A stretch of DNA of 64,000 nt from a bacterium 336/3 (GTDB lineage Bacteria; Bacteroidota; Bacteroidia; Cytophagales; Thermonemataceae), in contig LJIE01000001.1 in the NCBI GenBank assembly GCA_001281695.1, forward strand, positions 750,107-814,106, in the 5' to 3' direction. This document shows positions 252-8,103 of this stretch, piece after piece. A model generated the notes under the pieces. It was not told the origin of the DNA and did no database searches. It worked only from the letters and a program-made list of their open reading frames with translations. The position numbers and the translations under genes are program-made. Positions within the stretch are counted from its first letter, which is position 1, and every line of letters starts with the position of its first letter.

Positions 252-914
252 TCACAATTCTATATTTTTTGCTACGGGAAATTTCATAGTAAAATTACGA
301 ACAGCCATACATACCAAAGGGCGTTGTGTGGATATATCAGGAAATAAAGCGGAGTCTATTTGTAAATTTCTAAGCTTACATAATTTAGCCCAGCCTTTTC
401 CTTGGGGCTGTGTGAGCAAGGTTTTACTTTCTAATGGTTGATAAAAATTGAAAGGAAACAAAGCTGTATTGATATAAAAAGGTATGCCATAAGATTTTAT
501 ATCAGCCTGAAAGAAAGTTTTTTGACTGTTTTTTACTTCAAAATAGGCTTGATTTTGAGCAATTTGAGTAATCTCAAAATCTGCTAATTCTTTTGGAATA
601 CCCCAATTCTGGATACCATTATAGACACTTTCGTAAGTGGAAACATAAATTTTAGAAATATTAAAACCTGTTTTCTTTTCAAAATTAAACAACCCAGGGA
701 TAAATAAAAGCTCTTTGTATCCACCTACTTCCGAAGTGTGATAATCTACGAGCATTACGCTTCCAATCACACCTTTAAAAGTAGCTTTTTTATGAAATTC
801 TGTTAAAAAACCTTGTTTTTCAATAAATTCTTTAGAAAAACGATACAAAAAAATATATCCATTGCCCCTGAGTGTCCAAGGGGCAGGAGCAATGACAGAG
901 GGCTGAGGCATCAT
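252..914 (-). CDS. acetoacetate decarboxylase family protein
   Basis: A 220-residue protein resembling the acetoacetate decarboxylase (ADC) fold family. It opens with 'PAPWTLRGNGYIFLYRF', contains 'KELLFIPG', and around residue 105 has 'NWGIPKELADF', which aligns with the YPKKLG motif of Clostridium ADC. The first lysine (Schiff-base position) is kept. The second, which lowers its pKa, is Glu. This points to an ADC-like enzyme with altered chemistry, or a non-decarboxylating aldolase/dehydratase relative, rather than true acetoacetate decarboxylase. There is no signal peptide. Its ATG overlaps the stop of the upstream VWA/FHA gene as ATGA (911-914), so the two are probably translationally coupled. 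A second ATG follows immediately. The substrate is unknown. Confidence 0.75.
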   Translation of the reverse strand: MMPQPSVIAPAPWTLRGNGYIFLYRFSKEFIEKQGFLTEFHKKATFKGVIGSVMLVDYHTSEVGGYKELLFIPGLFNFEKKTGFNISKIYVSTYESVYNGIQNWGIPKELADFEITQIAQNQAYFEVKNSQKTFFQADIKSYGIPFYINTALFPFNFYQPLESKTLLTQPQGKGWAKLCKLRNLQIDSALFPDISTQRPLVCMAVRNFTMKFPVAKNIEL

Positions 915-2380
915 AAGTTAAAAGTCATTAAAGCTCCTCCTAACTGTATTTTATCACCTTGTTTTAGAATATGCTTATCAACTTTGTTTCCATTTACAAT
1001 GACACCATTAGTACTACCATTGTCTGTGATAAACCAGTTTCCTCCTTCGTTTGTCAAAATGGCATGTTTACCTGAAACACTTTGAACAGGGATTACAATG
1101 TCATTATCTTCTTTTCTACCAATAGTCATGGTGGGCTTGTGTAACTCAAAAGTTTTACTGATACCTTCTCCTGTAACAGAAAGGGTTGGCGTTCCACCAC
1201 CTACACCAATATATGTTTTTTTAGGGTCAAATTTTTTAGGTTCTTCTTTTACAACTGTTGGCTGTTGAGTAAATTGTTGATTTTGAAGTTGTTGCTGTAA
1301 TGCTTGTTGCTCTTGTAAAAACTGCTCTTTTTGTTGTTCCATTTGTTTTTTGAGGGCATTCTGCTCTTCTTGTTGGCGTTTTTTAGCTTTCTGATTTCTT
1401 TGAATAAATACAAAAACAAGAGCTGCCATTATTACAAAACCAATAGCTATAAATAATGGTAAATTATTGGTTTTTGAATCGCTTTTAGAGCTTTCAGGTT
1501 TGGTGATTGTAACATTTTGAGCCTTTCCATCTATACTGATTTGAATCCCCTCTACGCTTTCAGAGTTAGGTGGCGTAAAAGAAATTTCATATACTCCTGA
1601 AGATTGTTTTTCTGAGCTACCTATAAAACTATTGAGTTTTTCTGTAATTTCTGAGCTACCACTTACCATATCACTTTGTGCATTGGTTTTGTCAGCTAAT
1701 TTTTTAAGATTATCCAAAGCATACGGAAACCCAGTCTTATAAACCAAAGAATACACTTTTATTTTACTACTATTGGCTTTATCAATACAATCTTCAATTT
1801 TAAAATTAGAATAGCTTTTATTGACACCTGCTGTAAGCACCACAATGATTTTTTCAGGCTCGTTGGTGGATTGGCTTACATACTCAATGGCATCATAAAT
1901 AGCTTTATGAATATCTGCTTGTTTGATAGTATCTCTCACAGGTTTGATTTTTTGATTTAATTCGCTGATGAATAGCTCTTTATCGACAGTAAAATCGGCA
2001 CTCCAATTGTTTAGAATTTTACTGTCGCTGTTGGCTTTCCAAAATGAAGAAGCATTGAATAATGTACCTTCAGGAGTAGATTTGATGAAATCGGAAACAC
2101 CTGACTTAAAATGACTTACTACTTGGGAGCTTGTGAAGCCTGATGTTTCTATCAAAAAATAAATAGATTTTGCACCTACTTGACTATTAGAGTCTTTGGC
2201 GATTATGAAACTGATAGTTTGACCATTTTGGGTTATCTTTGTGTTTTCTTGTGTAATGGGTTTTTCAGATGTGATTTTAGCTTTAATATTGGGAAATCCT
2301 TGATTATCAATATCTATTTTTTGAGCTATGCCTTGAAAAGCATACACACTAATCCAGAATAAAACGAGAATCTTTTTCAT
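911..2380 (-). CDS. VWA and FHA domain membrane protein
   Basis: About 489 residues starting at the ATG at 2378-2380; an in-frame TTG lies three codons upstream. The order is an N-terminal signal peptide ending near 'GIAQ', a von Willebrand factor A-like domain (about 60-270) predicted outside the membrane, one transmembrane helix near residues 312-330, a Gln/Glu-rich coiled coil (about 335-385), and a C-terminal cytoplasmic FHA domain. The FHA domain has the classic 'GRKEDNDIVI', 'SGKHA' and 'NGSTNG' motifs that bind phosphothreonine. It probably links an envelope interaction to a Ser/Thr phosphorylation signal; no kinase is adjacent. It overlaps the downstream ADC-like gene by four bases. 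The specific role is unknown. Confidence 0.85.
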   Translation of the reverse strand: MKKILVLFWISVYAFQGIAQKIDIDNQGFPNIKAKITSEKPITQENTKITQNGQTISFIIAKDSNSQVGAKSIYFLIETSGFTSSQVVSHFKSGVSDFIKSTPEGTLFNASSFWKANSDSKILNNWSADFTVDKELFISELNQKIKPVRDTIKQADIHKAIYDAIEYVSQSTNEPEKIIVVLTAGVNKSYSNFKIEDCIDKANSSKIKVYSLVYKTGFPYALDNLKKLADKTNAQSDMVSGSSEITEKLNSFIGSSEKQSSGVYEISFTPPNSESVEGIQISIDGKAQNVTITKPESSKSDSKTNNLPLFIAIGFVIMAALVFVFIQRNQKAKKRQQEEQNALKKQMEQQKEQFLQEQQALQQQLQNQQFTQQPTVVKEEPKKFDPKKTYIGVGGGTPTLSVTGEGISKTFELHKPTMTIGRKEDNDIVIPVQSVSGKHAILTNEGGNWFITDNGSTNGVIVNGNKVDKHILKQGDKIQLGGALMTFNL

Positions 2381-2442
2381 ACTTAACAAAATGGTCTAAA
2401 TGATTTAGAGTGCTAATATAACGAAAAAATATTTGCTAAAAT

Positions 2443-5313: not shown

Positions 5314-5321
5314 TAGATTTG
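5314..5321 (+). promoter_or_regulatory. -7 promoter element (TAGATTTG)
   Basis: TAGATTTG matches TAnnTTTG exactly, 19 bases before the ATG at 5341. I found no good -33 TTTG at the usual spacing (the nearest TTTG is 12 bases away), so this is a partial promoter call for the 5341-8103 run. Confidence 0.45.
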
Positions 5322-5340: not shown

Positions 5341-6834
5341 ATGAGTGCTCCAGTTCGTGAAGAAACAAAAGTTGTGCATTTTTATTATATGCCTTTTATT
5401 GTAGATATGTTTTTGCGTTGGTGTACGATGGGTTTGTATCGTTGGCGTGTAAAGCCTGTTCATGAATCAGAGGATTTTATCTTTTTTATAGTAGAACAAA
5501 TTATTATTACAGTAATAACGGTTCTATGGATTCTGAGAAGGTTTAATCAACTCAAAAAGCAATATGATTTTTTAAGAGAGGGATTTTATGAAGAAAAGGT
5601 ATCCTTACTATCTATTGCCTTTAGACTTTTCAATGTTGTTTCTGTTACATACATTATTGCTAATATTATCAGAGAGCAAAAATTTTATCACGAGTTTGTA
5701 GGAGTTCGTCAAGATGGTTCTCAATATGCTGCTTATTTTTTAGTGTTTTTGGTATATGCAGGTATTATGGTGTTTTTATCTTTCATTAGTATCAGAGTTT
5801 CTAAAGAACACGAGGAAGAATTTGTTTCTATTCCCATTGCGGACCCTATGCCATTAGGGAAATGGGTAAAAAAATTGACCAAACGTTACTCAAATGAGCA
5901 AGATATAGATACATCATCATTGATTGATAGATCCTTGTTTCTTAATTCATTTGATTACCAAATAGATAGAAATGATTTGGAAATTATTAAAGTAGAAGGG
6001 AGACTTCGCAACGAACATTCAAGGGTAGAAGCATATATTCTTGAAAGTGTTATGTTTGGAGCTTTGGCTTTTTCAGGATTTTTATCCATTATAGCCTCAG
6101 AGCGATTTAATTATACAATCAGTGAAAGGCAAGATTTTTTGACCAAAAACGTTAAAATTAATAATGAGTCTTTAGTAAAAGAAAATAGTACAATTGTTTT
6201 AAATACAACTAAAATAAAGGATGATAAAACGACTGCAAAAGAACAATCTGTACCCTTAGTAAAAACGACTGAAATGCGTCTTTTTTGGGAAGATACGATG
6301 GAGTTGTTTGATAATATTGTTTTATTCAAACTTCAGGATGCTTCTAAAAACTGGGATAAACTCATACAGCCCAGTAATTTGATTATGCTCATTACCATTG
6401 AAACACTTTTTTGTGCTTTATTTTTCCTTTCTGTAATTGCTTCACGGCTTCGATATACCAAAATGACAGAAGAAATTGATAATTTGGTACGTTTGGCAAG
6501 AAATTTTAATGATAAAGAAGAAGAAGTACACAATTTAGTATTACAAGGTTTAGGAGATGAGGCAGTACAAATCAACTTACACCAAAGACTACAAAGTTTG
6601 GGAGCAAAAATTAATCAATATTTAGAAAGAGCTAATATCCTTCTTTCTCAAACACGCCCTATTTTAATTTATATGAGTTTATTTAGAAATTTGGGTGTAA
6701 TTATGTTTATTTTTATTTTGATAACCAGTAGCTTGTTCTTCTCAAAATCACTTGCCATGATATTCTTAACATGCTCAATTGTGGCTTATATTTATGAATA
6801 TGTGGATATTAAATTACGCATGAAAGCTAAATAA
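5341..6834 (+). CDS. multi-pass membrane protein of unknown function
   Basis: I do not recognise this 497-residue protein. About seven hydrophobic segments are visible: near residues 47-65, 88-109, 128-150, 228-250, 345-367 and a double segment at 440-490. A hydrophilic, Lys/Thr-rich stretch at about 251-344 separates helices 4 and 5 and may lie outside the membrane. A predicted coiled-coil region at about 370-435 precedes the last helix pair. There is no signal peptide and no obvious catalytic motif. Its stop overlaps the next start as TAATG, so it is probably cotranslated with the MORN-type protein. The combination suggests an envelope or sensory scaffold; that is inference only. Confidence 0.7.
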   Translation: MSAPVREETKVVHFYYMPFIVDMFLRWCTMGLYRWRVKPVHESEDFIFFIVEQIIITVITVLWILRRFNQLKKQYDFLREGFYEEKVSLLSIAFRLFNVVSVTYIIANIIREQKFYHEFVGVRQDGSQYAAYFLVFLVYAGIMVFLSFISIRVSKEHEEEFVSIPIADPMPLGKWVKKLTKRYSNEQDIDTSSLIDRSLFLNSFDYQIDRNDLEIIKVEGRLRNEHSRVEAYILESVMFGALAFSGFLSIIASERFNYTISERQDFLTKNVKINNESLVKENSTIVLNTTKIKDDKTTAKEQSVPLVKTTEMRLFWEDTMELFDNIVLFKLQDASKNWDKLIQPSNLIMLITIETLFCALFFLSVIASRLRYTKMTEEIDNLVRLARNFNDKEEEVHNLVLQGLGDEAVQINLHQRLQSLGAKINQYLERANILLSQTRPILIYMSLFRNLGVIMFIFILITSSLFFSKSLAMIFLTCSIVAYIYEYVDIKLRMKAK

Positions 6835-7637
6835 TGTTTATATCTATGAAAATCTTATTTGTATTGTTTTGTTTTTTAGGCTCTTTTGGACTGTACGCTC
6901 AAGATTTGGAAACAAATCCTTTGGAAACAGATACTGTTCCAGACTTGAAAATAAAAATGCCTAAAGAAAAGAAAACTGTAAAAGAAGCTAAAGCTAAGAA
7001 AAATGTGTTTTATGGAAAAAAAACCCGTAAAACATTCATTAAAAACGGAGCAATTACAGAGGTCTTCCATTACTTGACTGTCAATGAGCAACCGAATAAA
7101 TATATAGAAGAAATTTACTCTTATAACCCAAGTAAAAAAAGAATTTATGTATCCAACTATCAAAAACTAGATATGGATGATAATAAAGTTTTGCATGGTC
7201 CCTATAAAAAAATGAGAGATAATAAAGTAATAGAAGAAGGCTTTTTTTATATAGGTGTCAAGCATGGTCGATGGGAAAAGTTTGGAAATGATGCATTAGA
7301 TAGAGATTTTGTAATGACTGAGAAAGTAAAATATAATAGAGGATTTCTAAAGGATTCGAAAGTCCAGTATTATGATGACCAACGTAAAAAACTTAAAGAA
7401 GTAATTCCCATTAAAAATGATAAAGAAGATGGAACATATTATTTATATCATTCCAATGGCAATTTAGCTATCAAGGGGAATTATCAGAACGGAGTAAAAG
7501 TAGGCTTATGGGTAGAATACCATACCAATGGAAAAAGAAAAAAAGAAACTACATATAATAAAAACTGGTATGATAAAAATACAGAGCCTCCTCAAATCAG
7601 AGAATATGATGAGAATGGTAGAATTATTCAAAATTAA
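6834..7637 (+). CDS. exported MORN-repeat (YwqK-type) protein
   Basis: A 267-residue protein with a signal peptide ending 'GLYAQ', so probably periplasmic or exported. After a Lys-rich linker it carries MORN_2-like units of the form 'G.Y..YH.NG.L...G.Y..G...G.W': 'GTYYLYHSNGNLAIKGNYQ' near residues 202-220, then 'GLWVEYHTNGKRKKETTY'. Such proteins are often annotated as YwqK-family antitoxins, but Bacteroidota members are usually exported and the antitoxin label should not be taken literally. The first ATG overlaps the upstream stop by one base; a second ATG at 6846 gives the same signal peptide and is an equally good start. The 3' end overlaps the Rid lipoprotein start. Confidence 0.75.
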   Translation: MFISMKILFVLFCFLGSFGLYAQDLETNPLETDTVPDLKIKMPKEKKTVKEAKAKKNVFYGKKTRKTFIKNGAITEVFHYLTVNEQPNKYIEEIYSYNPSKKRIYVSNYQKLDMDDNKVLHGPYKKMRDNKVIEEGFFYIGVKHGRWEKFGNDALDRDFVMTEKVKYNRGFLKDSKVQYYDDQRKKLKEVIPIKNDKEDGTYYLYHSNGNLAIKGNYQNGVKVGLWVEYHTNGKRKKETTYNKNWYDKNTEPPQIREYDENGRIIQN

Positions 7638-8103
7638 AAAGGCTGAAATAAAAGGAATTATTATCCTTCTAACAAGTTTGTCAATAAGTTCTTGTAATAC
7701 AATTCAAAAGTCTAACTTTAAAAAAGAATATATTCATCCTGCCAATGGTTACTCTCAAGTGGTAAGCATTACGTCTGGCAACACCAAAACACTCTATATT
7801 TCTGGTCAGATAGGAGAGGGGAAGGATTTGGAAGCTCAAATGCATTCAGTATTTTCTAAATTAAAAATAGAACTGGAAACTTGTGGGGCAACTTATAAAG
7901 ACATCGTAAAAATCAACACTTATATTGTCAATTATAAAGAAGAATATTACGAAACCTTTCGTAGAATACGCAGAGAGGTTTTAGGAACAGAAGAGATGCC
8001 AGCAAGTACTTTGATAGGAGTAACCTCTTTGGCAAAATCAGAATATTTGATTGAAATGGATGCAATAGCAGTGATTCCATTAGATAAAACAAATAAAAAA
8101 TAA
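7615..8103 (+). CDS. Rid (YjgF/UK114) family lipoprotein
   Basis: From the ATG at 7615 (alternatives at 7606 and 7609) the protein has a lipoprotein signal peptide with lipobox 'LSISSC', followed by a complete Rid fold of about 125 residues: 'LYISGQIG', 'CGATYKDIVKINTYIVN', and a C-terminal 'IEMDAIAVIP'. Classical RidA is a cytosolic imine/enamine deaminase. Here the protein should be lipidated and exported. At the position of the catalytic Arg105 ('PARS' in RidA) this protein reads 'PAST', so deaminase activity is unlikely. It starts inside the end of the MORN-type gene, indicating coupling. The family call is solid and the function open. Confidence 0.82.
   Translation: MVELFKIKKAEIKGIIILLTSLSISSCNTIQKSNFKKEYIHPANGYSQVVSITSGNTKTLYISGQIGEGKDLEAQMHSVFSKLKIELETCGATYKDIVKINTYIVNYKEEYYETFRRIRREVLGTEEMPASTLIGVTSLAKSEYLIEMDAIAVIPLDKTNKK

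What the first reader, a model, noticed from the sequence alone, without database searches (positions are those of the whole stretch)
5341..8103. Unrecognised three-gene envelope operon
A 497-residue protein with about seven helices, a MORN/YwqK-type exported protein and a Rid lipoprotein are joined by TAATG and coding overlaps, so they are probably translated together. None has a clear known job in this setting, and the combination is not one I know.
Basis: inference. Interest (0 to 1): 0.5.

Follow-up and report, generated by a model that had tools for sequence, protein, structure and literature searches.

The report
Strain-specific string of three envelope genes
Three neighbouring genes for cell-envelope proteins are really there and may be read together, but in the genomes compared the trio was together in this genome alone, so it looks like a local arrangement around one undescribed membrane-protein family rather than a conserved machine.

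Summary
The three ORFs exist as described: A (5341-6834, membrane protein), B (6834-7637, exported MORN/YwqK type), C (Rid lipoprotein, likely start 7606-7615). One TAnnTTTG promoter-like box lies before A and none before B or C, so a single transcript is plausible.

Of 59 genomes (own included) only this one has A-B-C together. A-B is adjacent in 4 of 4 genomes of the genus (Raineya and relatives) and stayed together although both flanks were rearranged, but is adjacent in 0 of 5 other A-bearing relatives. In the other three genus genomes the gene after B is not a Rid gene.

The parts differ in history. A is a rare, unnamed 7-8-helix family: 24 of 291 genomes of the order, plus two Bacillota loci; its neighbours change by clade. 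B is a lineage-specific near-core gene: 264 of 291 genomes of the order, 0 of 208 sampled outside. C is an exported Rid with serine where RidA has its catalytic arginine.

Best reading: a genus-specific A-B pair with C added locally. A as an inner-membrane helical-stalk sensor or channel-like protein and B as a periplasmic scaffold are inferred.

The parts
5314..5321 (+). TAGATTTG, a match to the Bacteroidota -7 promoter element TAnnTTTG, 27 bp before A
   Evidence: also at -33 (L073), -35 (L074), -36 (L075) before A in the three other genus genomes; about 0.11 expected per 118 bp. The element and its consensus are recalled; no -33 box was tested.
5341..6834 (+). Gene A: 497-aa integral membrane protein, 7-8 helices, three long helices 197-252, 344-402, 407-467; unnamed family
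   Evidence: no family above cut-off; alignment of 23; model, hydropathy; distribution
6834..7637 (+). Gene B: exported MORN/YwqK-type protein; start 6834 or, more likely, 6846
7606..8103 (+). Gene C: exported Rid-fold lipoprotein (longest frame from 7528; 7609 and 7615 are alternative starts); serine at the RidA arginine position

Best explanation
In this genome A, B and C form one string of same-strand genes that is probably one transcript from a promoter just before A (inferred). The string has two layers. A-B is a genus-level pair: it is adjacent in all four genomes of the genus seen here and has survived rearrangement on both sides. C is a local addition whose reading frame starts inside the conserved 3' end of B. 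A is an inner-membrane protein of an undescribed, patchily distributed family; its most conserved parts are one membrane helix and the three long helices that run from the membrane into the cytoplasm, so the most likely job is to pass a membrane or envelope signal inwards, or to form a small channel-like assembly (inferred). B is the order-specific, near-universal exported beta-repeat protein that most likely works as a periplasmic scaffold or binding protein independently of A in most species (inferred). C is an exported Rid-fold protein that probably binds a small ligand rather than hydrolysing imines (inferred from the missing arginine). Shown: anatomy, distribution, linkage. Inferred: transcript and all three functions.
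For: Anatomy. A-B adjacent in G000-G003 (gaps 0 or 11, 35, 35, 72 bp), followed by a VWA-domain protein rather than Rid in the other three. Those flank genes lie elsewhere in this genome: VWA protein about 3.0 Mb away (85% identity), hisS about 67 kb away (73%). TAnnTTTG before A in 4 of 4. A: 24 of 291 order genomes (one of 25 matches dropped by eye), invariant residues clustered at 209-253 and 362-396, two models with the same long helices. B: 55 of 59 with E <= 6.8e-27, 264 of 291. C: serine at the arginine position against 3k0t; other exported Rids with the same PAST motif in L044, L045, L047, L048.
Against: No expression data. No consistent functional partner of A: next to it lie a hybrid PAS histidine kinase (L103, L104), GldJ (L079, L080, L101), PGA_cap and an RsmI-like gene (L099), TatC (L138) or GH3 (L078) in other clades, so neither B nor any one pathway explains A. 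The fold search gave no match at E <= 0.001. A Rid lipoprotein, not orthologous and with the arginine kept, lies 4.2 kb downstream of A in L103, and a cytoplasmic RidA lies 4.0 kb from A on the other strand in L079; these could be read as weak recurrence of A near Rid genes.
Confidence: 0.5

Rival explanations
1. A-B-C is a real functional module (a complex of inner-membrane A, periplasmic B and lipoprotein C) that was assembled in this lineage and is simply rare in sequenced genomes.
For: Tight spacing and overlaps; all three are predicted envelope proteins; A-B linkage resists rearrangement.
Against: Trio in 1 of 59 genomes; B occurs without A in most genomes of the order; orthologue-like exported Rids in G010 and G030 are not near B.
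Confidence: 0.12
2. Chance adjacency: even A-B has no shared function and is kept together in the genus only by a shared promoter or by lack of time.
For: B is near-core without A; A has other neighbours elsewhere; A and B are apart in 5 of 5 other A-bearing relatives.
Against: Both flanks have moved while A-B stayed, at about 64% protein identity.
Confidence: 0.3
3. A belongs to the gliding or type IX secretion apparatus.
For: gldJ lies directly upstream of A in the three Bernardetia-type loci scored.
Against: SprA is in 169 of 218 sampled genomes of the phylum, whereas A was found in none of the 395 sampled besides this genome once two chance matches were dropped by eye; A occurs in two Bacillota; gldJ of this genome lies about 0.27 Mb from A; Raineya is described as non-motile (PMC5982127, abstract).
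Confidence: 0.08

Closest known systems
Rid/YjgF/UK114 family (PF01042), RidA subfamily variants with serine
   Same: C matches PF01042 at E 2.7e-19 and solved Rid structures down to E 9.2e-10; PMC4433059 (passages read) says about 10% of RidA proteins carry serine instead of the arginine.
   Different: C is predicted to be an exported lipoprotein and lacks the arginine needed for imine hydrolysis.
MORN_2 / YwqK repeat proteins
   Same: B has two weak MORN_2 stretches. MORN and YwqK-type proteins co-purified with FtsX and EnvC in Fusobacterium (PMC5915739, passages read), so envelope roles exist.
   Different: B is below Pfam's cut-off, is exported, is near-core in one order, and has no toxin next to it.
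Membrane signal transducers with helical stalks (general architecture only)
   Same: Several membrane helices running on into long cytoplasmic helices.
   Different: No kinase, receiver, HAMP or other known domain in A; no fold match at E <= 0.001.

Membership tests
Conserved three-gene operon | The same three genes adjacent in several genomes | tested here: not met
   1 of 59 genomes; the other three genus genomes have A-B then a VWA gene
Conserved A-B pair | A and B adjacent in relatives with changed flanks | tested here: met
   4 of 4 in the genus; 0 of 5 other A-bearing relatives, so the pair is limited to the genus
Single transcription unit | One promoter before A, none before B or C | tested here: inconclusive
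   Consensus match only; no RNA data
Rid family (PF01042) | Match over the curated cut-off | tested here: met
   69.8 bits against 27.3
RidA imine deaminase | Conserved active-site arginine | tested here: not met
   Serine in PAST at that place; requirement from PMC4433059, passages
MORN_2 (PF07661) | Match over the curated cut-off | tested here: not met
   23.6 bits against 29.6; two stretches, repeat pattern visible in the alignment
YwqJK-type toxin and immunity pair | A toxin gene beside the YwqK-type gene | tested here: not met
   Neighbours of B in the window are A and C, with no toxin family in Pfam, NCBIfam or PADLOC; toxin requirement recalled
Type IX secretion / gliding component (for A and B) | Presence follows the secretion system | tested here: not met
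   SprA in 169 of 218, B (E <= 1e-15) in 10 of the same-sized sample of 218, A in 1 of 395
Any solved fold, for A | A fold match well above unrelated rows | tested here: inconclusive
   Foldseek none at E <= 0.001; VIA best Z 13.1, 174 aligned, rmsd 4.2, among unrelated long-helix proteins; model pLDDT 76.5, pTM 0.61

The most novel reading that the evidence does not exclude
A founds a new family of membrane sensors or channels in which a helix bundle continues from the membrane into the cytoplasm; in Raineya and relatives it has been wired to B, the order's own near-universal envelope scaffold, and in this genome further to a ligand-binding Rid lipoprotein, making an envelope-sensing relay; in other clades the same A is wired to a histidine kinase or to GldJ instead.
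Probability: 0.1. Interest if true: 0.6.

Novelty: new member of a known kind. Interest (0 to 1): 0.3.

Why it matters
If the inferred roles hold, A offers a compact, unnamed membrane family whose partners change by clade, which suits tests of what signal it carries. B matters more broadly: an exported gene that is near-core in one bacterial order and, at the threshold used, unseen in the 208 sampled genomes outside it is a good candidate for an order-defining envelope function. The trio as such matters little.

Tried and rejected
Trio as a conserved operon: rejected on distribution. Type IX secretion or gliding link: rejected for B and A, although gldJ adjoins A in the three loci scored. Defence or phage origin: PADLOC gave only weak chance-level matches (best 0.0057 for C, 0.066 for A); PHROGs none; viral contigs 304 pattern stretches but no relative of A; plasmids no match for the Bacillus relative of A. 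Solved relatives of A by profile: best E 0.073, a designed binder, taken as chance. Fold searches with both models of A: nothing at E <= 0.001; VIA rows are long-helix bundles such as BBH37 and BAR domains, which the tool's own note says may be only a common arrangement. The N-terminal four-helix half was barely tested there.

Rows dropped before counts: G106 (E 8.8e-4) and G542 with G106 were judged by eye from their frames to be symporter-like proteins, not relatives of A. Two of the 24 remaining (G057, G156) are partial frames, and G179 and G192 are fusions. In one search four genomes lack a strong B: G029, G044, G058 with none and G039 with E 4.8e-8.

Literature: searches for YwqK, MORN repeat and Bacteroidetes (3 papers), MORN repeat and Cytophaga (1 paper) and 'YwqK family antitoxin' (3 papers) listed nothing titled for this family; listings only, except passages of PMC5915739. 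A has no name to search for. Raineya: listing and abstract. Rid: listing and passages of PMC4433059.

Full report
What is there. The window holds three + strand ORFs in a row: A 5341-6834 (497 aa), B 6834-7637 (267 aa) and C within 7528-8103. A ends in TAA and B's first ATG shares its last base, giving TAATG; the three genus orthologues of B, however, start at the Met that aligns with a second ATG at 6846. C's longest frame overlaps B by 110 bp, but the starts that leave a lipoprotein signal (7606, 7609, 7615) overlap by 32, 29 or 23 bp. Those starts lie inside codons of B that are conserved in its relatives. A TAnnTTTG box (TAGATTTG, 5314-5321) stands 27 bp before A; similar boxes stand 33, 35 and 36 bp before A in the three other genus genomes; none was found in the 130 bp before B (6846) or C (7606) in the window; 0.11 are expected per 118 bp. 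I did not test the -33 element, so this supports but does not show one transcript.

Where it lies. The window is in a 4.7-Mb genome. One genus relative (G002) has a contig of 62,734 bases, the same length as the Raineya orbicola contig found, so the genus is Raineya or its GTDB equivalent (inference). Raineya orbicola is described as a slightly thermophilic, non-motile filamentous member of Bacteroidetes (PMC5982127, abstract).

The trio. In 59 genomes, own included, A matches in 9, B in 56 at E <= 0.001 and 55 at E <= 6.8e-27, and some Rid protein in 37. By coordinates A and B are adjacent in G000-G003, with gaps of 35, 35 and 72 bp in the other three, and apart in the other five A-bearing genomes (G004, G005, G021, G028, G043; the first two are drafts with A and B on different contigs whose near neighbours were read). 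A-B-C occurs in G000 only. In G001-G003 the gene after B encodes a VWA-domain protein. The flanks of A-B in those genomes are elsewhere in this one: the VWA gene about 3.0 Mb along the contig, hisS about 67 kb away. A-B is thus a genus-level pair that outlived rearrangement, and C is a local addition.

Results against a clean picture. In L079 (G028) a cytoplasmic RidA lies 4.0 kb from A on the other strand; my clustering put it with C, but it is 24% identical, and its alignment end shows an arginine-bearing motif by eye. In L103 a Rid lipoprotein lies 4.2 kb downstream of A on the same strand; it is 26% identical to C and keeps the arginine by eye. A tblastn of C against 46 loci around A or B found only this one place, in two overlapping loci; that search missed the L079 RidA, so it is not sensitive to distant Rids.

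A. No Pfam, NCBIfam or PHROGs family is reached. A scan of genome contigs found 15 loci: 13 Cytophagales-type and two Bacillota, Planomicrobium stackebrandtii and Bacillus sp. NTK071 (28% and 26% identity). That scan used short peptide patterns and can miss relatives. In the order 24 of 291 genomes have it (one match dropped by eye); in a sample of 395 genomes of the phylum only this genome (two chance matches dropped by eye). In G179 and G192 the family is part of a 1211-aa frame with more hydrophobic stretches and weak TPR matches below cut-off. Over 23 sequences the conservation peaks at 231-253 (0.83), 370-402 (0.69) and 345-369 (0.68). The second model (23 rows) has pLDDT 76.5 and pTM 0.61 with long helices 197-252, 344-402 and 407-467; the first (9 rows) agrees on these. 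Charges favour cytoplasmic ends for 69-90 and 370-440 and for the C-terminus. No fold match is convincing. Neighbours elsewhere: hybrid PAS histidine kinase overlapping A by 4 bp in L103 and 19 bp after it in L104; GldJ in L079, L080, L101; PGA_cap before and an RsmI-like gene (below cut-off) after in L099; TatC in L138; GH3 in L078.

B. A single strong orthologue per genome is the rule: 264 of 291 genomes of the order at E <= 1e-15, 233 of 252 among those at least 90% complete. Of the 27 without it 20 are listed: 14 belong to family f22, whose genomes here are 0.7-1.9 Mb, and the other six are under 90% complete; seven are not listed. Outside the order none of 208 sampled genomes matches at that threshold (the list is sorted by kinship and 188 are not shown). 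SprA, a type IX secretion marker, is in 169 of 218, so B does not follow that system. B's neighbours differ between families; a lipoyl-ligase gene, UPF0102 and HSP90 recur near it in some. MORN and YwqK-type proteins were among those co-purified with FtsX and EnvC in Fusobacterium nucleatum (PMC5915739, passages), which makes an envelope scaffold a fair guess and no more.

C. It matches PF01042. Where RidA has its essential arginine (PMC4433059, passages) C has serine in the motif PAST. Exported Rids with PAST occur in G010, G030, G024 and G027, none near A or B by coordinates. Exported here means a signal peptide seen by eye.

Verdict.

Noticed in passing
window 6834-7637 and its orthologues: B is near-core in the order (264 of 291) and unseen at E <= 1e-15 in 208 sampled genomes outside it; the listed well-assembled genomes without it belong to one family of small genomes.
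   Followed up: partly
L134 4637-8272 and L135 5604-9239 (minus strand): A-type region inside a 1211-aa frame with further hydrophobic stretches and weak TPR matches.
   Followed up: partly
L079, L080, L101 (Bernardetia-type loci): gldJ lies directly upstream of the A homologue on the same strand.
   Followed up: partly
L103 9398-11944, L104 9418-11469: A PAS-domain histidine kinase gene follows the A homologue with a 4-bp overlap or a 19-bp gap.
   Followed up: no
L106, L107: Relatives of A in two Bacillota (Planomicrobium, Bacillus), far from the Cytophagales; possible transfer.
   Followed up: no
window 911-2389 (minus strand): 492-aa protein with signal peptide, a membrane helix and a C-terminal FHA domain; by eye a VWA-like exported part.
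   Followed up: no
G000:C1:486159-489237: Two gldJ-type frames in tandem in this genome.
   Followed up: no
L044, L045, L047, L048: Exported Rid proteins with serine (PAST) at the RidA arginine position in several families of the order.
   Followed up: partly
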